This document shows, in pieces, positions 3,132-31,562 of a stretch of DNA of 64,000 nt. Where the stretch lies: the NCBI GenBank assembly GCA_027692465.1, contig JAQEYU010000004.1, forward strand, positions 1 to 64,000, in the 5' to 3' direction. Numbering within the stretch: position 1 is the stretch's first letter; every line of letters begins with the position of its first letter. The notes under the pieces were generated by a model. It did not search any database and was not told the DNA's origin. It saw only the letters and a program-made list of their open reading frames with translations. A program made the translations under genes and the position numbers. This stretch comes from Enterococcaceae bacterium OF42-14pH9A. Its GTDB lineage: Bacteria > Bacillota > Bacilli > Lactobacillales > Enterococcaceae.

Positions 3132-3234
3132 TGCTACACTGTGGTCACATTTGAATAAGAAACATTTGGGGTGCTGTAAAGCTGAGATTATACCCATTGA
3201 ACCTGAAGCAGTTAGCACTGACGCAGGGAAATGT
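3132..3234 (+). promoter_or_regulatory. TPP riboswitch with its promoter
   Basis: An extended -10 (TGCTACACT, 3132-3140) precedes a THI-element from about 3165 to 3234. The diagnostic pieces are GGGGTGCTG, GCTGAGA, ACCCATTGAACCTGA and CACTGACGCAGGGAA. It controls the downstream thiamine salvage operon, whose first gene starts at 3488. Confidence 0.95.
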
Positions 3235-3264
3235 ACGGATCACAAGAATCTTTTTGCCTTTTTC

Positions 3265-9431: not shown

Positions 9432-9712
9432 CAACATCAATTATTAATCAGACTGCGACAAGAAGAGTAGCAGCCGATGGGATTCAAAGAGAGCCTTTGT
9501 GTGGTGGGAAAAGGCAGTCCGACGGCGGTGAAACACATCTTGGAGTCGATCTTCTGAAGGATTCAGTAGGAAGATCCGGGTTGGCCCGATACAGCCGCGG
9601 TCATTGTCAGATGACTTGCTGAGACACGTTTTGCGAAAAGCGTGTGAAAAAAGGTGGAACCACGTTACCGACGTCCTTTGGTTGTATTACCAGAGGGCGT
9701 TTTTTGCTATTT
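9432..9712 (+). promoter_or_regulatory. T-box riboswitch, histidine specifier (CAC)
   Basis: A classic T-box leader. The specifier region reads GGTGAAACACATC with CAC (His) at 9534-9536, the T-box sequence is AGGTGGAACCACG at 9652-9664, and the terminator stem spans 9671-9700 with T6. Uncharged tRNA-His would favour antitermination and expression of the his operon at 10186. Confidence 0.93.
9671..9705 (+). terminator. T-box terminator
   Basis: ACGTCCTTTGG pairs with CCAGAGGGCGT (with G-U pairs) and is followed by six T. Its 5' arm follows directly on the T-box sequence, as usual for antiterminator competition. Confidence 0.88.
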
Positions 9713-22356: not shown

Positions 22357-25029
22357 TTAGCTGTTTGCTTTGACAGTTTGGCTTGCCCGGCTGCGAATGA
22401 ATTTATCCAATTCGGTGACGCCCAGTGTCAAGAGACCGGCTAAAATTGCGACACCCCATTCCAACAGTGTCAGGTCCGTTGTATGGAAGGCACTCTGCAT
22501 GAAAGGGACATAAGTCAGCAGGATCTGCAACAGCAGCATAATGCCGATGATCACAAAGGCCATCTTGTTGCTGAAAAAGGCTTTTGAAAAGGCGAAGGCC
22601 TTAGTTCGGATATTGAACAGGTAGAAGATCTTACTCATAACGATGATGTTCACCAACATCGTGCTGGCAGTAGCTGCAGCGACACCCCGGCCCAACAGCC
22701 ACTGATAGGCGGCCAGACCGATTACCGCCATCAAAACCGATACATAAGCCATCTGGAAGATGTCGTGGCGGTCCATCAATGAGGTACCGGTTTTTTGCGG
22801 TTGCCGGTCCATGATGCCTGCTTCCGCCGGTTCGAAGATGAAGGCGAACTGGATTGTAATCGCCGAGACCATATTGATCCACAACAGCTGAGTCGCCGCC
22901 AGGGGCATTTCTTCTTGCATCAAAATCGTAAAGGCGATGATCAGCCCCTCGGCAAAGGACGTCGGCAAAAGGAACAAAATACTTTTCTTGATATTGTCGT
23001 AAATGCGGCGGCCTTCTTTAATGGCCACCGCCATCGTGGCGAAGTTGTCATCTGCCAGGATCATGTCTGCCGAGTCTTTGGCCACATCAGTCCCTTTAAT
23101 CCCCATGGCGACCCCGATATCGGCTCGTTTCAATGCCGGGGCATCATTGACACCGTCGCCGGTCATGGCCGTGACTTTGTCATCTGCTTGCAGGGCTTCG
23201 ATGATCTCCAGCTTGTTTTTCGGTGTGGTGCGGGCAAAGACCTGATGCTCTTTTGCAGCAGTGAGCTTTTCTTCATCAGACAGTTGATCCCACTGCGGTC
23301 CGGTAATGACCCGGATGCGGGGAGCCAGCCCCAGTTTTTCACCGATTGTTTTGGCAGTCAGGGGATGATCTCCGGTGATCATTTTGACGGCGACCCCGGC
23401 CCGGCGCATTTCTTTGAGGGCGTTGATGACTTCTTCTCGAGGCGGGTCGATAATCCCGGCGATCCCCAGCAGCCGGATCCCTTGTTGAAGCAGTTCCGGT
23501 GTGATCACAGTCACCGTATCTGGGAGTTCCTGCCAGCCGACAGCGACGACACGCTTGCCCTGTGTAGTCAGGCCAGTGACCTTTTCTTCCCAGAAAGCAG
23601 TCGGGAATGCCGGATCACCGGCAGACGCCAGCGGCAGCAGCTTGTCGGGAGAACCCTTCATGTACAGGCGCTTCTTGCCATCCGGGGTTTCCACCAGCTT
23701 GGCCATGTATCGGTAATCAGAATCAAAAGGCAGAAAATCCAGCTCCCGGTTTTGCGGTCGTTCGGGAAAAGGGGTCAGCTTATGATACAAAGTAAGAAAT
23801 GAGCCGTCCGTCGGTTCGCCGTTGATCTGCCAAGCACCATTTTCACAGTACAGCTCCGTATCATTTGCCTCATAGGCCGCCTCCATGAAGAGTGCCAGTT
23901 GCGGGTCAGCAAGGGACTCAGCCGAGGATTCTCCCAGCAGTTGGCCTTCAGGAGCATAGCCGTTACCGGTGACCCGGTAGCGGTTTTTGGGCAAATAAAC
24001 ATCAGTAACTGTCATCTCATTTTTTGTCAGCGTACCGGTCTTGTCGGTGGCAATTACGTCCACTGAACCCAGTGTTTCAACAGCCGGCAGACTTTTAACA
24101 ATGGTGTGCTTGGTTTTGGCCATATCGCTGACACCCATCGCCAAGATTACCGAAGTCGTAGCCGGCAGGCCTTCAGGAACAGAACCCACGATCATGGTGA
24201 CGACCGCCAGTGAAAGGGCTGAAACTGCGTAGGTCCCCCAAAGCAGACCCAAAATAAACAGCAGGACCGCCGCCCCCAATACGACATACGAGACACCTTT
24301 GCCCAGATTGTCGATCTGCTGCATCAACGGAGAGCGCCGCTTGGTGACATTGGCAACTTCGGTGGAGATTTTACCAATCTCGGTATCGGCGGCCGTGGCG
24401 ATCACAACCCCCAAGCCGGAACCGTTAGTGACCGAAGTGGAGGCGAAAGCCAGATTGGTGCGCTCTGCCAAGGGAAGCTCTTCAGCAAGCGGTGCATTGG
24501 TTTTTTCGACCGAGTCTGCCTCACCGGTCAGTGAGGCTTCTTCGATTCGCAGGTTGTCGACATCCACGATCCTTAAATCGGCGGGCACCTGATCGCCGGC
24601 TTCCAAGAAGACGACATCGCCTTTCACCAGCTCTTCAGCCGGAATGTCGATTCGATTCCCATCGCGGTAGACGGTAGCAACGGGAGTCAGCAAGCTCTTG
24701 ATCTGCTCCAGTGCATCCGAAGCATTGGCCTCCTGATAATAGCCGATCAGTGCGTTGATGACGATCACCAGTGCAATGATCGCCGCATCGCCATAATGTC
24801 CCATCACCAGGGTTAAGGCAGCTGCAATCATTAGGATATAGATAATCATATTGTGAAACTGGCGCAAGAACAGCTGCCATTTCGGTGTTCGCTTACTCTC
24901 TAAGCGATTGGGGCCATCCTGCGCCAGCCGCCTGGCAGCTTCTTCAGCGCTCAGCCCCTCTTCAAAGTCTTCGTGACCGAATGTTTCCTGCAGCTCCTGC
25001 AGGTTTTGTTGAATCAGATTTTTTTCCAT
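22357..25029 (-). CDS. P2-type cation-transporting ATPase
   Basis: An 890-residue P-type ATPase. In order it has N-terminal actuator pieces, TM1-2 (MIIYILMIAAALTLVMGHYG), SLTGEADSVEK, the TM4 ion-site motif GSVPEGLPA, DKTGTLTKNEM (phosphorylated Asp), KGSPDKLL, MITGDHPLTA, MTGDGVNDAPALKRAD, and TM5-6 ending LLWINMVSAITIQFAF. The TM6 sequence differs from canonical Ca pumps, so the ion (Ca, Mg or Na) is open. The start at 25029 has GAGGAAAT upstream; an in-frame ATG at 25068 is less likely. It is preceded by an attenuator-like leader with its own micro-ORF. Confidence 0.88.
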   Translation of the reverse strand: MEKNLIQQNLQELQETFGHEDFEEGLSAEEAARRLAQDGPNRLESKRTPKWQLFLRQFHNMIIYILMIAAALTLVMGHYGDAAIIALVIVINALIGYYQEANASDALEQIKSLLTPVATVYRDGNRIDIPAEELVKGDVVFLEAGDQVPADLRIVDVDNLRIEEASLTGEADSVEKTNAPLAEELPLAERTNLAFASTSVTNGSGLGVVIATAADTEIGKISTEVANVTKRRSPLMQQIDNLGKGVSYVVLGAAVLLFILGLLWGTYAVSALSLAVVTMIVGSVPEGLPATTSVILAMGVSDMAKTKHTIVKSLPAVETLGSVDVIATDKTGTLTKNEMTVTDVYLPKNRYRVTGNGYAPEGQLLGESSAESLADPQLALFMEAAYEANDTELYCENGAWQINGEPTDGSFLTLYHKLTPFPERPQNRELDFLPFDSDYRYMAKLVETPDGKKRLYMKGSPDKLLPLASAGDPAFPTAFWEEKVTGLTTQGKRVVAVGWQELPDTVTVITPELLQQGIRLLGIAGIIDPPREEVINALKEMRRAGVAVKMITGDHPLTAKTIGEKLGLAPRIRVITGPQWDQLSDEEKLTAAKEHQVFARTTPKNKLEIIEALQADDKVTAMTGDGVNDAPALKRADIGVAMGIKGTDVAKDSADMILADDNFATMAVAIKEGRRIYDNIKKSILFLLPTSFAEGLIIAFTILMQEEMPLAATQLLWINMVSAITIQFAFIFEPAEAGIMDRQPQKTGTSLMDRHDIFQMAYVSVLMAVIGLAAYQWLLGRGVAAATASTMLVNIIVMSKIFYLFNIRTKAFAFSKAFFSNKMAFVIIGIMLLLQILLTYVPFMQSAFHTTDLTLLEWGVAILAGLLTLGVTELDKFIRSRASQTVKANS

Positions 25030-25109
25030 GTTATTTCCTCTTTCTTTCAAATTCAGCGGTTTTTCCAACCAGTGCTAAGCAACAGCATTGTCTCGCTGCA
25101 GGGTATGCG

Positions 25110-25145
25110 AAAAAAGCACCTCACCTGTCCCGCAAATCGGAGGTG
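25110..25145 (-). terminator. Attenuator hairpin before the P-type ATPase
   Basis: On the minus strand CACCTC (25145-25140) pairs with GAGGTG (25122-25117), followed by CTTTTTT. It begins 17 bases after the micro-ORF stop and 80 bases before the ATPase start. Its 5' arm CACCTCC is perfectly complementary to GGAGGTG, the ribosome site of the micro-ORF. Confidence 0.65.
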
Positions 25146-25161
25146 ACGCACTGAAAGAAAG

Positions 25162-25233
25162 CTATTCCTTTTGGAAATAAGCAAGTTTATAGATGAATTT
25201 TTGGGGCGACGTCTCCTCGGCGTCTTCGTCCAT
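25162..25233 (-). CDS. Acidic 23-residue leader ORF
   Basis: The micro-ORF starts MDEDAEETSP and ends KLAYFQKE. Six of its first eight residues after Met are acidic, followed by a basic and aromatic tail. GGAGGTG (25249-25243) sits nine bases upstream of the ATG. An in-frame ATG at 25251 has no comparable ribosome site. The position between a promoter and a terminator ahead of a P-type ATPase suggests a leader peptide, loosely like MgtL before mgtA, where acidic or proline codons destabilise ribosomes at low Mg. That parallel is inference. Confidence 0.55.
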   Translation of the reverse strand: MDEDAEETSPQKFIYKLAYFQKE

Positions 25234-25319
25234 AAGTTTTCCCACCTCCATACCTTTCTGGTTTGATCATGCAGGGACCAACCGCTGAAAAAAACAGCTG
25301 TCATTTCCCTCTGAAGAAA

Positions 25320-25348
25320 AAGTAACACAGGTGGGAGGGATTCGTCAA
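25320..25348 (-). promoter_or_regulatory. Promoter of the ATPase leader
   Basis: On the minus strand TTGACG (25348-25343), a 17-base spacer and TTACTT (25325-25320). This gives a leader of about 280 bases before the ATPase ATG. From 25349 to 25776 the sequence is AT-rich and holds no gene that I can support, only the upstream region of the ABC operon. Confidence 0.55.
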
Positions 25349-25776
25349 ATTATTTTATTTAAATCGTTTTTTATGAAATAATAGGACAGTAAGAAGCCGG
25401 TGCCAAAGGTAAAAATAACTAAAAAGGAGGATCTGAAGAGCAAACTTATCTGATTTTTCTGAAATGAAAGACAGTAGAAAATCTCTGAAAAAAAGAAGCA
25501 AAAGGTGCCGTCAGCTGTCGATTTCAATTCATTTTTTGCCGATTTTTGACGGATAAAACGATTTATGTTAACAGTTTCACTATTGTCGGGAATGATTTAT
25601 AATAGCCAAGGGTATACGAAGACCGTTCTGTTGCGAATAACAGAATTTTTGAAAATCATCCCTTGCAAATTGATGAGATTTGCAGAAAATCACTCTCACT
25701 AAACTTTATAAATTATAACAAGGGAAAAATGCTAAAATAGGCTCGTATGCTAAAAAATGGTAATGGAGGATTTCTA

Positions 25777-26850
25777 ATGATTGAAGTTATCAATCTGAAA
25801 AAAGTGTTCGATAACGGGTTCGAGGCACTGAAGTCGGTGAACTTCACCATCGAAAAGGGTGACCTCGTCTGTCTGCTTGGCCCTTCCGGCTGCGGTAAAT
25901 CCACGATCTTGAACATGATCGCCGGTTTATTGACACCGACATCCGGCGACATCAAGTTTTCCGGTAATTCCGTCGTCAAGACAGAACCGAAAGATCGTAA
26001 CATCGGCTTTGTATTCCAAAATTATGCGCTGTATCCTCATATGACGACATTTGAAAATGTCATGTTTCCTCTGACTGTCGGCAAACATAAAAAGACCAAA
26101 GAAGAAGCACAGGCAATCGCCGAAAAATATATGAAGCTCACCAATATCGAAGAGCTGCGGGACAAAAAGCCCGGCACACTCTCCGGCGGTCAGCAGCAGC
26201 GTGTCGCCATCACTCGTGCACTGGTCCAAAATCCGGAAGTCCTGCTTTTGGATGAACCACTGAGTAACCTGGATGCTCGTCTGCGTTTGAAGATCCGTGA
26301 AGAGATTCGCCGACTGGTAAAAGAAGTCGGAATCACGACCATCTTCGTTACCCACGACCAGGAAGAAGCCCTTTCCATCAGTGACAAGATCATCTTGATG
26401 AATGAAGGCGTAGTCCAACAAGACGACGATCCGCAAAACCTGTATCTGGAACCTGCCAACCTGTTTGTTGCCCAATTTATCGGAAATCCTATCATCAATA
26501 TCCTGCCGGTAGAAGTTCGTGACGGTCACATGCACTATGAAGCCTTCAGCGTTCCTGTCGATCGCTTTGTGGCAGAACGCTTCAAAGAAAACATGCCGGA
26601 TGGCAATTACGTTCTGGGAATCCGCCCGGAAGATGTCCTGCCGGTAGCCGGTGAAGGCGCGTTTGGCGCGACTGTCCACGGGGTAGAACTGATCGGCCGC
26701 GAACGCATCTTGAACTTTGAGATCGGCAGCCACCACTTGAAATCCATCGTCAGCATCGAAAATGAGATCCAAGAAGGAGCCGAGCTGACCTTTGACTTTG
26801 CCTATCAAAAGGCCTTTATCTTTAAAGAAGACGGGACCAGGATCTACTGA
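25777..26850 (+). CDS. CUT1-type ABC importer ATPase (MsmK/UgpC-like)
   Basis: A 357-residue ATPase with Walker A GPSGCGKST, Q-loop VFQNYALYPHMT, signature LSGGQQQRVAITRAL, Walker B VLLLDEPLSNLDA, H-loop VTHDQ and a C-terminal regulatory OB domain (about residues 235-357). This architecture is typical of carbohydrate and glycerol-3-phosphate importers. The start at 25777 follows TGGAGGA. It is the first gene of a five-gene operon; its stop overlaps the next start. Confidence 0.9.
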   Translation: MIEVINLKKVFDNGFEALKSVNFTIEKGDLVCLLGPSGCGKSTILNMIAGLLTPTSGDIKFSGNSVVKTEPKDRNIGFVFQNYALYPHMTTFENVMFPLTVGKHKKTKEEAQAIAEKYMKLTNIEELRDKKPGTLSGGQQQRVAITRALVQNPEVLLLDEPLSNLDARLRLKIREEIRRLVKEVGITTIFVTHDQEEALSISDKIILMNEGVVQQDDDPQNLYLEPANLFVAQFIGNPIINILPVEVRDGHMHYEAFSVPVDRFVAERFKENMPDGNYVLGIRPEDVLPVAGEGAFGATVHGVELIGRERILNFEIGSHHLKSIVSIENEIQEGAELTFDFAYQKAFIFKEDGTRIY

Positions 26851-27734
26851 TGTTCAAGAAGAACAACTACAACCCGGAAAACCAGCCCAAAGCATGGCTC
26901 TTCCTTCTGCCATCTTTGGTGATCATTCTGGTATTTTCCATCTATCCGCTGATTCGTTCCTTTGCCATGAGTTTCCAAAAAGGCTCGCTGATCAATATGC
27001 GGCCGGCCGGTCTGGAAAACTATGAAAAAATCCTCAGCGATCCGGTATTCTGGCGGGCGCTGAAAAACACCGCCTGGTATGCCTTTTTGACGGTGCCGGT
27101 AGCCTTGCTCCTCGGCTTGGGGATTGCCTGGATCATCTTTGAAAAAGTCAAACACAAGAGCTTTTTCGAAACGATCTTCTTTATGCCTTATGTCACCAGT
27201 ACGATTGCTATCGGGATCGTCTTTCGTTACTTCTTCAACGGCGACTACGGGATCATCAACTATGGTTTGAGCTTCTTTGGCATCAAAGGCCTCAACTGGT
27301 TGGACAGTGTCGATCTCTCGATGCCGACCTTGATCATCTTCGGTATCTGGAGCTCGCTGGCCTTCAACATCATCATCTTGTTGGGTGGTCTGCGCAATAT
27401 TGATGAAGAACACTATAAGATCGCTAAAATGTTCGGTGCCACCGACGGCGAAATTTTCCGCCGCATCACCTTGCCGCAGCTGATTCCGACGATGACATTC
27501 TTATTGACGGTCAATATCATCGGTGCCTTCAAAGTGTATACTCAAGTGTATGCCTTGTTTGCCGGCCAACCGGGGATTGCCAAGAGTGCAGTCACCGCAG
27601 TGTACTACATTTACGACAAGTTCCATATCGCCGGACGTCCGGGCGTGGCAATGGCCGCAACGGTGGTCTTGTTCCTGGTGATTCTGGCTTGTACCTTTAT
27701 CCAACGAAAAATCATCAAGAAAGTGGGGGAATAA
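26850..27734 (+). CDS. ABC importer permease 1 (MalF/UgpA-like)
   Basis: A 294-residue permease with six predicted helices. It starts with a cytoplasmic tail and TM1 AWLFLLPSLVIILVFSIYPL, and has the EAA-loop sequence ALRNIDEEHYKIAKMFGATDGEIFRRITLPQL that docks to the ATPase. The ATG overlaps the preceding TGA (TGATG). Confidence 0.9.
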   Translation: MFKKNNYNPENQPKAWLFLLPSLVIILVFSIYPLIRSFAMSFQKGSLINMRPAGLENYEKILSDPVFWRALKNTAWYAFLTVPVALLLGLGIAWIIFEKVKHKSFFETIFFMPYVTSTIAIGIVFRYFFNGDYGIINYGLSFFGIKGLNWLDSVDLSMPTLIIFGIWSSLAFNIIILLGGLRNIDEEHYKIAKMFGATDGEIFRRITLPQLIPTMTFLLTVNIIGAFKVYTQVYALFAGQPGIAKSAVTAVYYIYDKFHIAGRPGVAMAATVVLFLVILACTFIQRKIIKKVGE

Positions 27735-27737
27735 GCC

Positions 27738-28556
27738 GTGAAACGAGTCGTAAATATCATCTGTATGATCTTTTTGATTGTGATGGCCATCATCACTGTT
27801 TTCCCATTCATCTATATGATTTTGGGAGGCTTGATGACCCGTTCGGAAGTGACCAGCATTCCGCCGACCATCATCCCGAAAAGCTTCCAGTTCTCAAACT
27901 TTATCGATGTCTTTGACAAAGCGCCTTTTGTCCGCTACTTCTTCAATACCGTGTTCGTCTCAGCAGTCACGACGATTGCGACCTTGATTACAGCAGTGCT
28001 GGCATCCTTTGCACTGACCAGCTTGGAGTTCAAATTCAAAAAAGTGGTAATCGCGATTATGGTTTCTCTCTTGATGGTGCCGTATGAATCCATCATCTTT
28101 ACCAACTTCAATACCGTCGCTAAACTGGGCCTGCTGAATACCTATGCAGCCCTGATTATTCCTTTTTTGACCAGTATCTTCTATATTTACTACCTGAACA
28201 GTTACCTGAACGGGATCTCGCTGTCTTATTACAAGGCAGCCAAGATTGACGGTGCCAGTGATCTGGAATACATCCGCCGTATTTTAATCCCGATGATCAA
28301 ACCGGCTCTGGTGACAGTGGGGATCTTGACCTTTATCTCCAGCTGGAATTCCTTCTTGTGGCCGTTGTTGGTAACCAATGACAAAGATCACCGCCTGTTG
28401 AACAACGGGTTGTCCGCCTTCACCACTGAAAGCGGCAGTGACGTGCATCTGCAGTTGGCAGCAGCGACACTGACAGTCATTCCGATCTTGATCATCTACT
28501 TCGTGTTCCGCAAAGAAATCATTCGAGGGGTGGCAAAAAATGGGATCAAAGGCTAA
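27738..28556 (+). CDS. ABC importer permease 2 (MalG/UgpE-like)
   Basis: A 272-residue permease starting with GTG. TM1 is IICMIFLIVMAIITVFPFIY and the EAA loop is YYKAAKIDGASDLEYIRRILIPMIKPAL. It pairs with the preceding permease and ends inside the start of the MBL gene (17-base overlap). Confidence 0.9.
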   Translation: MKRVVNIICMIFLIVMAIITVFPFIYMILGGLMTRSEVTSIPPTIIPKSFQFSNFIDVFDKAPFVRYFFNTVFVSAVTTIATLITAVLASFALTSLEFKFKKVVIAIMVSLLMVPYESIIFTNFNTVAKLGLLNTYAALIIPFLTSIFYIYYLNSYLNGISLSYYKAAKIDGASDLEYIRRILIPMIKPALVTVGILTFISSWNSFLWPLLVTNDKDHRLLNNGLSAFTTESGSDVHLQLAAATLTVIPILIIYFVFRKEIIRGVAKNGIKG

Positions 28557-29832
28557 AACGACCGTCACTTTTCACAGTGGGATCCTGACGATCGGCGGCA
28601 CCGTCATCGAAGTCCGCTATGGGGATGCCCACATCTTCTTTGACTTTGGCACGGAATACCGGCCGGAGCTGGGCTTACAAGACGACCAGTTGTCTACCCT
28701 GTTGGACAATCGTCTGATTCCGAAGCTGAAAGATATTTATGATCCGCGCCTGGGTTATGAATACCAGGGAACAGCGGTGGCAGATTTCCAACACACGGCC
28801 GTCTTCTTGTCTCATGCCCATCTGGATCATTCGAAAATGATCAATTACCTGGATCCGGCGATTCCGCTGTATACCTTGAAGGAAACCGACGCGATCTTGC
28901 GTTCATTGAACCGCAATGGGGACTTCTTGATTCCTTCGCCTTTTGAAGCAGCCAACTTTACGCGGAACATGATCGGGCTCAATGCCGGTGATGTCGTTGA
29001 AATCGGTGAAATCACGGTGACAATCCTGCCGGTAGATCACGATGCGTATGGTGCTGCGGCCCTCTTGATCCGGACCCCGGACAAGTTTCTGGTGTATACC
29101 GGCGATCTGCGGCTGCACGGCTACGATCGGCAGTTGACCATTGATTTTTGTGAACGGGCAAAAGGTTGCGATCTCTTGATGATGGAAGGCGTCAGCATTT
29201 CCTTTGATGACCGTCCGGCAGATCCGACTGAAACCATCAAGATTCTCAGTGAAGCAGACTTGGTCCAACAGTTGGTCCGTCTGGAAAACGAGAATCCGCA
29301 GCGACAATTAACCTTCAACGGCTATCCGGCTAACGTGAAACGTTTTGCTAAAATCGTTGAGCTGTCACCGCGAACCGTGGTACTGGAAGCCAACATGGCT
29401 GCATTATTGCAAGAAGTCTTGGGGATCAGCGCCAATTATTACTATGCTGATCCGGAACATCGGATCGCCTCATTGGCTGACGAATTGGAAATTCCACTGG
29501 CCGTCTTGTTAACAGACGATCACCAGTATTTGTGGCAGATAGTCGACGGTTTTGAAAACCTGCAGGCAGGCGGTATGTATTTCCATATCGATGCCCAACC
29601 ATTGGGAGATTTTGACCCCGCCTATCAAGTCTTTTTGGATCTTTTGGCAAGCCTGGATGTGGAATTTGTACGATTGGCTTGCTCGGGTCATGCCTTTCCT
29701 GATGACCTGGCTAAGATCATCGACATGATCCAACCGAAAACTTTGGTTCCAATCCATACTTTGAAGCCGGAAAAACTGGTGAATCCGTATGGTGAAAGAA
29801 TTCTTCCCACTCGTGGGGAGACAATCTCATAA
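28540..29832 (+). CDS. MBL-fold metallohydrolase, RNase J / beta-CASP-like
   Basis: A 430-residue metallo-beta-lactamase-fold protein with the zinc motif SHAHLDHS (about residue 90), the conserved His of LPVDHDAYGAAAL (about 168) and YTGDLRLHG with the bridging Asp. Its C-terminal part CSGHAFPDDLAKIIDMIQPK then TLVPIHTLKP resembles the RNA-metabolising RNase J group. It is embedded between permease and binding-protein genes, so it probably acts on the imported ligand or a derivative. A phosphodiesterase activity is a guess by analogy with ugpQ. Substrate unknown. Confidence 0.8.
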   Translation: MGSKAKTTVTFHSGILTIGGTVIEVRYGDAHIFFDFGTEYRPELGLQDDQLSTLLDNRLIPKLKDIYDPRLGYEYQGTAVADFQHTAVFLSHAHLDHSKMINYLDPAIPLYTLKETDAILRSLNRNGDFLIPSPFEAANFTRNMIGLNAGDVVEIGEITVTILPVDHDAYGAAALLIRTPDKFLVYTGDLRLHGYDRQLTIDFCERAKGCDLLMMEGVSISFDDRPADPTETIKILSEADLVQQLVRLENENPQRQLTFNGYPANVKRFAKIVELSPRTVVLEANMAALLQEVLGISANYYYADPEHRIASLADELEIPLAVLLTDDHQYLWQIVDGFENLQAGGMYFHIDAQPLGDFDPAYQVFLDLLASLDVEFVRLACSGHAFPDDLAKIIDMIQPKTLVPIHTLKPEKLVNPYGERILPTRGETIS

Positions 29833-29858
29833 AAACTTTTTTTAAAGGAGAGTCAAAA

Positions 29859-31157
29859 ATGAAGTTCAAAAAAATGGGTACTGTGGTATTGGCTGCAGCA
29901 GCGATGGTTGCATTGGCAGCTTGCGGCAACTCAGGCAACGACAGCAAAGGCGGCGACTCAAAAGGCGACGACAGCAAAATCGTCACTGAGATCACCAAAG
30001 ACACGGAGATCACTTTCTGGCACGCAATGAACGGTGCCCAAGAAGAAGCGTTGACAAAGATCACCGACGACTTCATGAAAGCAAATCCAAAGATCAAAGT
30101 TACTCTGCAAAACCAAGGTCAATACTCTGATATGCAAGCAAAAATCAACTCGACGCTGCAATCACCAAAAGACCTGCCGACTATCACCCAAGCTTATCCA
30201 GGCTGGTTGTGGAACGCAGCTCAAGAAGACATGTTGGTTGACTTGAAACCATTGATGGACGACAAAACCATCGGCTGGGGCGACCAAGAAGCTATCCGCG
30301 AACCACTGTTGAAAGGTGCGGAAATCGACGGCAAACAATACGGTATCCCATTCAACAAATCGACTGAAGCATTGGTTTACAATGCCGATATGCTGAAAAA
30401 ATACGGTGTTGAAGTGCCTAAGACAATGGAAGAATTCGCCCAAGCATGTAAAGACATCTACGAAAAATCAAATCACGAAGTTGTCGGTGGCGGTTTTGAC
30501 TCTCTGAACAACTACTACACAATCGGTATGGAAAACCAAGGTGTGGAATTCACTAAAGACCTTGATTTTGCCAGTGATGAATCCAAATCAGTTATCGATT
30601 ACTACTTGGAAGGCATCAAAGACGGCTCTATGCGGATCGCCGGTTCCGACAAATACTTGTCCGGTCCTTTCGCCAACGAAAAAGTGGCAATGTTCATCGG
30701 TTCAATCGCTGGTGAAGGCTACGTGAAGAGCGATACAGAAGGTAAATTCGAATACGGCGTAGCACCTCGTCCTGACAAGAAAAACATCCAACAAGGGACA
30801 GACGTCTACATGTTCTCAGAAGCAACTCCGGAACAACAAACAGCAGCTTACCTGTTGTTGAAATACATGGCACAACCGGAAGTACAATTGTACTGGGCTG
30901 AAAAGACCGGTTACATGCCAATCGTTGAATCTGTTTTGGAATCTGATGAATACAAATCTTCTACAGAAACTAAAGTACCAGCTATCCTGGAAGAAGCAAC
31001 CAAAGATTTGTTCGCATTGCCTGTAACTGAAAATGCAGACCCTGCTTACAACCAAGTTCGTACAATCATGGAAAACATCTTGTCCAATCCTGACGGCAAG
31101 ACAGACGATATGATCAAACAAGGCGTTTCCGAATTGGAAGACGCTTGGAACCAATAA
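29859..31157 (+). CDS. ABC importer solute-binding lipoprotein (UgpB-like)
   Basis: A 432-residue lipoprotein. The signal peptide MKFKKMGTVVLAAAAMVALA ends at lipobox LAAC (Cys22), followed by a Ser/Asp/Gly linker and a family 1 solute-binding fold (EITFWHAMNGAQEEALTKI; YGIPFNKSTEALVYNADML). The FWHAM opening is common in UgpB-like glycerol-3-phosphate binders, but a sugar is possible. AAAGGAGAG precedes the ATG. It favours AAA, CAA and GAA codons more than its neighbours, as expected for high expression. Last gene of the operon. Confidence 0.9.
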   Translation: MKFKKMGTVVLAAAAMVALAACGNSGNDSKGGDSKGDDSKIVTEITKDTEITFWHAMNGAQEEALTKITDDFMKANPKIKVTLQNQGQYSDMQAKINSTLQSPKDLPTITQAYPGWLWNAAQEDMLVDLKPLMDDKTIGWGDQEAIREPLLKGAEIDGKQYGIPFNKSTEALVYNADMLKKYGVEVPKTMEEFAQACKDIYEKSNHEVVGGGFDSLNNYYTIGMENQGVEFTKDLDFASDESKSVIDYYLEGIKDGSMRIAGSDKYLSGPFANEKVAMFIGSIAGEGYVKSDTEGKFEYGVAPRPDKKNIQQGTDVYMFSEATPEQQTAAYLLLKYMAQPEVQLYWAEKTGYMPIVESVLESDEYKSSTETKVPAILEEATKDLFALPVTENADPAYNQVRTIMENILSNPDGKTDDMIKQGVSELEDAWNQ

Positions 31158-31241: not shown

Positions 31242-31562
31242 TTAATGCCCGCCGGTAACTTTGATCCCTATGATACCTACCAGCAACAAACCGACAAACA
31301 GCCAAGTGATGGGCGCTAGCTTGTCGTGGAAGAAAACGACACCGATAATAATCGAGCCGACCGCACCGATCCCGGTCCAAATCGGATACGAGAGGCTCAT
31401 CGGGAGTGTTTTGATGGCCTTCGAAAGAAAATAAAAGCTGGCGACCATACCCAATACGCAATAGACAGCGTAGTTCAGCTTACTGAAGCCATTGCTTTGT
31501 TTCATCATCGTTGACCAAAAAACCTCCAAACCTCCTGCCAAAATCAAATCCAACCATGCCAT
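31242..31562 (-). CDS. Small multidrug resistance family exporter, Gdx/SugE-like
   Basis: A 106-residue, four-helix SMR protein. The proton- and substrate-binding Glu is in AGGLEVFWS (Glu13), and the Gdx-type segment is YPIWTGIGAVGSIIIGVVFF. These features fit the guanidinium-exporter (Gdx, formerly SugE) branch better than EmrE. GAAAGGATG precedes the ATG. Upstream lies a long leader with its own promoter and terminator, which I could not match to a known guanidine riboswitch. Confidence 0.85.
   Translation of the reverse strand: MAWLDLILAGGLEVFWSTMMKQSNGFSKLNYAVYCVLGMVASFYFLSKAIKTLPMSLSYPIWTGIGAVGSIIIGVVFFHDKLAPITWLFVGLLLVGIIGIKVTGGH

What the first reader, a model, noticed from the sequence alone, without database searches (positions are those of the whole stretch)
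25110..25251. P-type ATPase leader: acidic micro-ORF whose ribosome site is complementary to the attenuator arm
Seen: a minus-strand promoter (TTGACG-17-TTACTT), then a 23-codon ORF starting MDEDAEETSP, then a terminator 17 bases after its stop, then the ATPase gene. The ORF's ribosome site GGAGGTG (25243-25249) is a perfect 7-base complement of CACCTCC (25139-25145), the 5' arm of the terminator. Translation of the ORF would keep the ribosome site occupied and let the terminator form; poor initiation or early ribosome drop-off would free it to act as antiterminator. Known: acidic or proline-rich codons near the start of MgtL destabilise ribosomes at low Mg and control mgtA, also a P-type ATPase. 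Inference: this may be an independently built Mg-sensing leader in Lactobacillales.
Basis: partly seen in the sequence, partly recalled or inferred. Interest (0 to 1): 0.8.

Follow-up and report, generated by a model that had tools for sequence, protein, structure and literature searches.

The report
Acidic leader peptide gating cation exporters
A tiny acidic peptide gene and a transcription stop signal sit in front of two unrelated metal-ion pump genes in enterococci and relatives, and probably switch the pumps on when ribosomes can finish the peptide because magnesium-like ions are plentiful.

Summary
Upstream of the P-type ATPase (22357-25029, minus) lie a strong ribosome site, a 23-codon acidic ORF (25162-25233) and, 10 nt after its stop, a terminator-like hairpin. 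The leader is conserved: all 25 of 105 family genomes with a close ATPase ortholog have it (two copies degenerate), as do three E. faecalis plasmid copies. It also precedes a second exporter type, a CNNM/CorC-like Mg2+ efflux protein, in 5 of 5 close orthologs; one genome has both.

The ORF is selected as a peptide (pN/pS 0.27 in ten pairs): acidic N-terminus, [QL]xE end, stop UAG/UAA in 32 of 32, hairpin -1 to +14 nt after the stop in 29 of 29 measurable leaders. The proposed RBS:CACCTCC pairing is absent in 36 of 36 relatives, and no other antiterminator is conserved.

Best reading: a ribosome-occupancy attenuator with logic opposite to MgtL. At low Mg2+ ribosomes drop off the acidic codons and the terminator forms; at high Mg2+ they reach the stop, hold the terminator open and induce the exporter. 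Drop-off, pausing, Mg2+ and the sign are inferred; nothing was measured.

The parts
25320..25348 (-). candidate promoter TTGACG-17-TTACTT (or TACTTT with 18); not flagged by the consensus scan, which lists another at 25406-25378
   Evidence: by homology to TTGAC promoters close to the ORF in relatives (automatic picks)
25243..25249 (-). ribosome binding site GGAGGTG of the leader ORF
   Evidence: similar sites in relatives
25162..25233 (-). leader ORF, 23 aa MDEDAEETSPQKFIYKLAYFQKE, stop TAG; acidic N-terminus, YFQKE end
   Evidence: conserved peptide
25152..25161 (-). 10-nt spacer between the leader stop and the terminator
   Evidence: -1 to 14 nt in 29 of 29 measurable leaders
25110..25152 (-). 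intrinsic terminator: GTGCG-stem-loop-stem-GGTGC plus U run; lower stem with a G x G mismatch (G25147 x G25120)
   Evidence: upper stem covaries, G x G in 30 of 37 rows
22357..25029 (-). P-type ATPase, type IIA-like cation pump (890 aa), the gene controlled
   Evidence: Pfam and NCBIfam; nearest solved structure LMCA1/lmo0841
25139..25145 (-). CACCTCC, complement of the RBS claimed as attenuator arm; not conserved, likely chance

Best explanation
The element is a ribosome-occupancy transcription attenuator that induces cation exporters. A ribosome loads on a strong site and translates a 17-23 codon ORF whose first codons are rich in Asp/Glu (often Asp-Pro-Asp). When free Mg2+ (or an equivalent cation) is low, the acidic nascent chain makes ribosomes drop off early, the downstream hairpin folds, and transcription stops. 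When cation is plentiful, ribosomes reach the end, slow at the conserved [QL]xE-stop (UAG/UAA), and sit at or against the terminator. The hairpin cannot close, and the exporter gene is transcribed. Shown by sequence: the parts, their conservation, peptide-level selection, spacing, and sharing between two exporter families. Inferred: drop-off, pausing at the stop, Mg2+ as signal, and the sign of regulation.
For: Leader next to the ATPase in 25 of the 25 family genomes that have it at E<=1e-220 (105 genomes), and in 3 of 3 fetched E. faecalis plasmid copies of 6 listed. Same leader before CNNM/CorC_HlyC proteins in 5 of 5 loci (L049 itself and four at 71% identity), one genome having both. No match at E<=0.05 in 5 of 5 more distant CNNM loci and 11 of 11 paralogous ATPase loci; best stray E=0.42. 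Acidic residues in positions 2-10 average 3.7 in 37 leaders against 0.93 in 45 long window ORFs. Ten pairs give pN/pS 0.27, and 0.18 for residues 2-10. Stop UAG 25, UAA 7, UGA 0 of 32; last residue E in 30 of 32; spacer -1 to 14 nt in 29 of 29. In 4 CNNM leaders the TTG-started acidic ORF runs through the terminator. Terminator covariation. No conserved antiterminator. Predicted -10 to start codon is 41 nt or less in 28 of 37 leaders. No Rfam match at gathering score. Early acidic residues, notably EPDP in MgtL, cause drop-off that EttA counteracts (PMC11282234, passages).
Against: No expression, toeprint or Mg2+ data. In 20 of 29 leaders the spacer is 9-14 nt, so a ribosome on the stop codon abuts the hairpin rather than covering its base (footprint recalled). 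L046, L053 and L058 lack a recognisable terminator of this kind; L040 has a premature stop. In the four through-terminator CNNM leaders the start is assumed: an ATG 3-4 nt after the SD in another frame gives an 11-12 aa ORF, and beyond the acidic start the long frame shows no purifying selection. Three Companilactobacillus orthologs (63%) have a different, non-acidic ORF. One Paenibacillus-family leader is an orphan. G003 and G102 have a broken ATPase behind an intact-looking leader. The ATPase's ion is unknown; TM6 reads NMVSAI, without LMCA1's Asp. CNNM relatives include PaeA, named a polyamine exporter. The window's own 5' UTR is long (about 85 nt from the -10 to the ORF), leaving room for another element.
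Confidence: 0.6

Rival explanations
1. MgtL-like logic: translation of the ORF favours the terminator, and ribosome loss frees an antiterminator (RBS with CACCTCC, or another upstream segment) and turns the gene on at low Mg2+.
For: Perfect 7-base complement in the window; the window is one of 4 of 29 leaders whose best alternative pairing beats shuffles at z below -1.64; MgtL precedent.
Against: Complement absent in 36 of 36 other leaders. Over 29 leaders alternative pairings are no better than shuffles (mean z -0.19) and scattered in position. Ribosomes ending -1 to 14 nt from the hairpin would hinder it. An exporter switched on at low Mg2+ makes poor sense.
Confidence: 0.1
2. The sensor is the C-terminus: the nascent [QL]xE-stop peptide arrests termination in response to a cation, polyamine or another ligand, and the acidic N-terminus only sets the baseline.
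For: E before the stop in 30 of 32, Q or L at -3 in 32 of 32, no UGA in 32; low synonymous change in the last six codons (pS 0.16 against 0.32 overall).
Against: The four CNNM leaders whose ORF runs through the terminator lack this end yet keep MDDEDSL (TTG start assumed). The acidic start is the more general feature (36 of 37 have two acidic residues adjacent or one apart).
Confidence: 0.2
3. The 22-aa product is a small regulatory protein that binds the pump, like small membrane regulators of P-type ATPases (recalled), and the terminator is only a partial terminator between two genes.
For: Selected as a peptide; hydrophobic middle in many members.
Against: Hydrophobic part only about 10 residues; middle very variable (YYYYYKIPYFQKE, KRRFYQRE); same leader before an unrelated CNNM protein; narrow stop-to-hairpin distance; through-terminator ORFs.
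Confidence: 0.07
4. A riboswitch aptamer in or before the ORF senses the metal, and the ORF is incidental.
For: Some nucleotide-level conservation (GACGCC..GACGTC in the window and avium-type leaders); the window and L001 have a longer 5' UTR with, in the window, a predicted hairpin.
Against: No Rfam match at gathering score, and only two chance-level hits at E<=10. No conserved structure except the terminator and a weak U-rich hairpin in the alignment. Synonymous sites change about four times as often as non-synonymous ones. The 5' UTR looks short in 28 of 37 leaders.
Confidence: 0.05

Closest known systems
MgtL leader of mgtA (E. coli/Salmonella), intrinsic ribosome destabilisation
   Same: Short ORF with early acidic or Pro-acidic codons before a P-type ATPase; premature termination controlled by whether ribosomes finish it (PMC11282234, passages).
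   Different: MgtL sits before an importer, works with Rho and with gain at low Mg2+. Here the terminator is intrinsic, the genes look like exporters, the predicted sign is opposite, and the ORF has a conserved C-terminal [QL]xE-stop.
mgtQ uORF of Salmonella mgtB
   Same: Asp2/Glu5 codons needed for regulation of a Mg2+ transporter (PMC8092293, passages).
   Different: Acts on translation through RBS release within an operon; importer.
pil1 leader peptide of Streptococcus gallolyticus
   Same: Translation of a leader destabilises a premature stem-loop terminator and raises transcription, in another member of Lactobacillales (PMC3894217, abstract).
   Different: Controlled by repeat-number phase variation, not by ions; the abstract names no acidic codons.
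E. coli/Salmonella CorC (YbeX) early IRD sequence and YoaL leader of mgpA
   Same: Ribosome-destabilising or leader translation suggested to raise Mg2+-protective CorC-type proteins at high Mg2+ (PMC12421838, passages).
   Different: IRD lies in the CorC coding sequence itself; YoaL overlaps mgpA; mechanisms stated there as unclear.
yybP-ykoY Mn2+ riboswitch upstream of P-type ATPases in lactic bacteria (recalled)
   Same: Metal-induced expression of a P-type exporter.
   Different: No aptamer or Rfam match here.

Membership tests
MgtL-type IRD leader | Short leader ORF with acidic (or Pro-acidic) codons within about the first 10 residues | tested here: met
   36 of 37 leaders have two acidic residues adjacent or one apart in positions 2-10; 9 of 37 start M[DE]P[DE]
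MgtL-type IRD leader | Controls premature transcription termination before a Mg2+ transporter | tested here: inconclusive
   Terminator-like hairpin present before an ATPase of unknown ion and before CNNM proteins
MgtL-type IRD leader | Rho-dependent terminator exposed by complete translation | tested here: not met
   An intrinsic hairpin plus U run is used instead; so works like, not a member of, MgtL
MgtL-type IRD leader | Mg2+-dependent ribosome drop-off | not testable with these tools
   needs toeprint or peptidyl-tRNA assay
Antiterminator-switch attenuator (mutually exclusive hairpins) | Conserved alternative pairing of the terminator 5' arm | tested here: not met
   0 of 36 relatives keep the RBS complement; no consistent pairing in 29
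Ribosome-occupancy terminator blocking (pil1-like) | ORF ends within about a ribosome footprint of, or runs into, an intrinsic terminator | tested here: met
   spacer -1 to 14 nt in 29 of 29 measurable; TTG-started ORF through the terminator in 4 CNNM leaders
Ribosome-occupancy terminator blocking (pil1-like) | Translation raises downstream transcription | not testable with these tools
   reporter assay needed
yybP-ykoY or M-box riboswitch | Rfam-recognisable aptamer | tested here: not met
   no match of these families in 24950-25450
P-type IIA Ca2+-ATPase | Ca-site Asp in TM6 (SERCA D800, recalled) | tested here: not met
   NMVSAI where LMCA1 has NLVNDS

The most novel reading that the evidence does not exclude
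A convergently evolved Mg2+ (or general cation) sensor in Gram-positive bacteria in which the ribosome itself is the sensor and the sign is opposite to MgtL. An acidic start codes for drop-off at low cation, a [QL]xE-UAG end codes for a pause that holds an intrinsic terminator open at high cation, and the cassette has been reused in front of two unrelated exporter families (P-type ATPase and CNNM), in one genome both.
Probability: 0.45. Interest if true: 0.85.

Novelty: new variant of a known kind. Interest (0 to 1): 0.72.

Why it matters
If right, ribosome stability at acidic codons is used as a physiological cation gauge outside enterobacteria, with opposite output, and as a portable cassette that also rides on E. 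faecalis plasmids. It gives a natural series (37 leaders with different acidic starts and ends) for testing how acidic nascent chains, Mg2+ and stop-codon identity affect ribosomes. It also gives a function lead for an ATPase whose ion is unknown.

Tried and rejected
Rejected: the RBS:CACCTCC antiterminator; any other conserved antiterminator in the ORF or RBS; a pairing of GTGCG with the CGYAT after the U run (65% of cells paired, no more than shuffles); known riboswitches; Mg2+-importer assignment of the ATPase (TIGR01524 scores 333 against cut-off 611, PMR1-type 565 against 798; of the 21 models listed only the general P-type model TIGR01494 passes its cut-off). Model hits rejected as false after reading: L050, L055, L057/L099/L116, L059-L063, L066, L115; that is 1 of 27 matched genomes, 7 of 26, 1 of 3, 1 of 5 and 2 of 32 matches. 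The SD-preceded acidic 12-aa ORF at 31518 lies inside an ORF that looks (by eye) like an SMR transporter. Rows left out of counts: the 4 through-terminator CNNM leaders and L040 (premature stop) from the stop and last-residue counts (32 of 37 used); the spacer count and the alternative-pairing test use 29 of those 32 (L046, L053, L058 have no recognisable arm). The pN/pS figure uses ten hand-chosen pairs; a pooled figure over overlapping pairs was 0.30. Companilactobacillus loci L008, L010, L011 were not counted as members. Hairpin energies printed were cut badly in some rows and are not used.

Literature: eight searches listed, judged by title and start of abstract, no paper on an Enterococcus or P-type-ATPase leader of this kind. 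I saw passages of PMC12421838, PMC11282234, PMC12815764 and PMC8092293 and the abstract and outline of PMC3894217. Subscription papers and preprints are mostly outside that library.

Full report
OBSERVATION. The sequence is as described. On the minus strand, TTGACG-17-TTACTT (25348-25320) is followed by GGAGGTG (25249-25243), an ORF of 23 codons from ATG 25233 to TAG 25162 (MDEDAEETSPQKFIYKLAYFQKE), ten bases, a hairpin from 25152 to 25115 (-18 kcal/mol for a 61-nt piece, z -1.8), a U run, and the ATPase start at 25029. The complement CACCTCC (25145-25139) to the ribosome site is real. The simple consensus scan flags neither this promoter nor this terminator and prefers a promoter at 25406-25378. 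In the window, 3 of 48 SD-preceded ORFs of 12-40 aa have at least 3 acidic residues in positions 2-10; two of the three precede a terminator-like hairpin, and of these only this one is not inside a longer gene-like ORF.

THE GENE. The ATPase is a type II P-type pump (Pfam E1-E2_ATPase, Cation_ATPase_N and _C). The best-scoring NCBIfam models are PMR1- and SERCA-type Ca2+ pumps, below cut-off; the general P-type model passes; the Mg2+-importer model scores far lower. The nearest solved structure by sequence is the Listeria Ca2+-ATPase LMCA1 (lmo0841), but its TM6 motif NLVNDS is NMVSAI here. It is probably an exporter by family, of unknown ion.

CONSERVATION. A protein search of named genomes gave 14 loci. 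Eleven carry the short acidic ORF upstream (Enterococcus, Tetragenococcus, Vagococcus, Paenibacillus antibioticophila); three Companilactobacillus do not. Model R1, from 12 leaders, hit 27 of 105 genomes of the nearest relative's family (23 before the ATPase, 3 before CNNM genes, 1 false). Model R2 was run over 395 genomes of the order (26 hit, 7 of them false) and 197 of the Paenibacillus family (3 hit, 1 false). R3 was run over 398 genomes of the class (5 hit, 1 false), the 105 family genomes again (32 matches, 30 true in 29 genomes, false ones read) and 40 of the Paenibacillus genus (2 hit). Of the 105 family genomes, 25 have the ATPase at E<=1e-220, and all 25 have the leader next to it (23 by R1, two more by R2; all 25 by R3). 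Two of the 25 are degenerate: L040 has a premature stop, L046 no typical terminator. Six E. faecalis plasmids carry the ATPase at about 65% identity; I fetched three, all match R3, and read two. In G053 the leader has a premature stop and the ATPase match also contains a stop; but G102 and G003 have a broken ATPase behind an intact-looking leader.

TWO EXPORTER FAMILIES. Weak hits L047-L049 proved to lie before a different gene: CNNM, CBS and CorC_HlyC domains, with relatives among solved CorC/CNNM proteins. A protein search found ten such loci in the 105 genomes at E<=1e-120. Five (L049 itself and four at 71%) have the leader; the five at 55-65% do not. In the other four CNNM-leader genomes the best ATPase match is 37-38%. 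In streptococci, loss of the MpfA homolog gives Mg2+ sensitivity, though intracellular Mg2+ was not raised (PMC12815764, passages). This points to Mg2+; polyamine-exporter relatives keep polyamines possible.

SELECTION ON THE PEPTIDE. Ten pairs of leaders give pS 0.32 and pN 0.085, ratio 0.27 (Fisher p=2e-9); residues 2-10 give 0.18. Over 37 leaders, acidic residues in positions 2-10 average 3.7 (minimum 2) against 0.93 in 45 window ORFs (ATG, 150 aa or more); after position 10 they are rare (2.4% of residues, 32 leaders) until the last residue. The last residue is E in 30 of 32, position -3 is Q or L in 32 of 32, and the stop is UAG in 25, UAA in 7 and UGA in 0 of 32, against UGA 23, UAA 16 and UAG 6 of the 45. 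The background is small and the leaders are not independent, so these are indications rather than exact probabilities. Between the window and L001 the ORF is 68 of 72 identical, the 5' UTR 41 of 64 and the stretch after the terminator 41 of 58; but 25351-25420, upstream of the candidate promoter, is also 59 of 70, which is unexplained.

TERMINATOR. The upper stem covaries (43 double-change cells against 12.8 in shuffles; 89% paired against 34-64% when slid; alignment fitted to this structure). The lower stem GYRCG/GGNGC varies little and holds a G x G mismatch in 30 of 37 rows, with U-G and G-U wobbles. Why a terminator should keep this weak base is unexplained; it may make the hairpin easy for a ribosome to prevent. 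The hairpin begins -1 to 14 nt after the stop in 29 of 29 measurable leaders. In L056 the stop codon overlaps it. In four CNNM leaders an acidic ORF from TTG (MDDEDSLCI..) runs through it and ends at the CNNM start region. The start there is assumed: an ATG just after the SD opens a different 11-12 aa frame, and beyond the acidic start the long frame shows no purifying selection.

NO SWITCH PARTNER. The RBS complement occurs in the window only (0 of 36 others). The best alternative pairing of the terminator arm with the RBS or ORF is no better than with dinucleotide shuffles (mean z -0.19, n=29; 4 of 29, the window among them, below -1.64) and its place is scattered. A pairing with sequence beyond the U run also fails. 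No Rfam family matches here at its gathering score. The automatically picked -10 lies 41 nt or less before the start codon in 28 of 37 leaders (median 34), so most have no room for an aptamer; the window itself, at about 85 nt, does.

MECHANISM. Acidic residues early in a peptide make ribosomes fall off, and the EPDP motif of MgtL does so at low Mg2+ (PMC11282234, passages); nine of 37 leaders start with the same acid-Pro-acid pattern. With no competing pairing and the terminator at the ribosome's leading edge, the simplest circuit is: drop-off means termination; completion, probably with a slow end at [QL]xE-stop, means read-through. High cation would then induce an exporter, the sensible direction and the mirror of MgtL. 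A precedent for translation destabilising a terminator is pil1 of S. gallolyticus (PMC3894217, abstract). A 2025 paper suggests that CorC-type Mg2+ protection genes in Salmonella rise at high Mg2+ through IRD or a leader, mechanism open (PMC12421838, passages).

LIMITS. No expression or biochemical evidence exists here. The sign, the ion and the pause are inferred. Spacers of 9-14 nt (20 of 29) place the hairpin at or just outside the edge of a ribosome sitting on the stop codon (footprint lengths recalled), which weakens the simplest steric version. Three leaders lack the typical terminator, one has a premature stop, and one is an orphan.

VERDICT. A real, conserved leader-peptide attenuator candidate of two cation exporter families, not found described in the eight searches made. 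It works like MgtL in its proposed sensor and like pil1 in its output, and is a member of neither.

Noticed in passing
L008 about 1375-1480, and the same place in L010, L011 (upstream of the ATPase): Companilactobacillus orthologs have a different conserved short ORF (MKLKA..IIKS, TTG start, read by eye) and terminator before the same ATPase: possibly a second, unrelated leader-peptide attenuator.
   Followed up: partly
L065 1501-1634 (minus): Intact-looking orphan leader in a Paenibacillus-family genome whose best ATPase match is 37%; an ORF on the opposite strand overlaps it.
   Followed up: partly
window 25253-25316 (minus) and L001: Window and nearest relative have a longer 5' UTR (in the window with a predicted hairpin AGGGA..TCCCT) than most other leaders; identity there is 41 of 64, like the stretch after the terminator.
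   Followed up: partly
window 25351-25420: Stretch upstream of the candidate promoter is 59 of 70 identical to L001, more than the promoter itself (20 of 34), and holds a better-scoring promoter match (25406-25378).
   Followed up: no
window 25115-25152 (minus), A3 columns 120-125 and 157-162: Terminator base GYRCG/GGNGC with a G x G mismatch in 30 of 37 rows, across genera and both exporter families; reason unknown.
   Followed up: partly
L116 963-1039: An intergenic hairpin in G082, among what look like mobile-element genes, has the same GTGCG..GGTGCTTTTTTT form without an acidic ORF.
   Followed up: partly
window 9446-9681 and 3157-3246: T-box leader and TPP riboswitch (Rfam), and a tRNA cluster at 1-697.
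   Followed up: no
window 25747-31157 (plus): Divergent UgpC/UgpE-like ABC importer genes and, by eye, a substrate-binding lipoprotein next to the ATPase.
   Followed up: no
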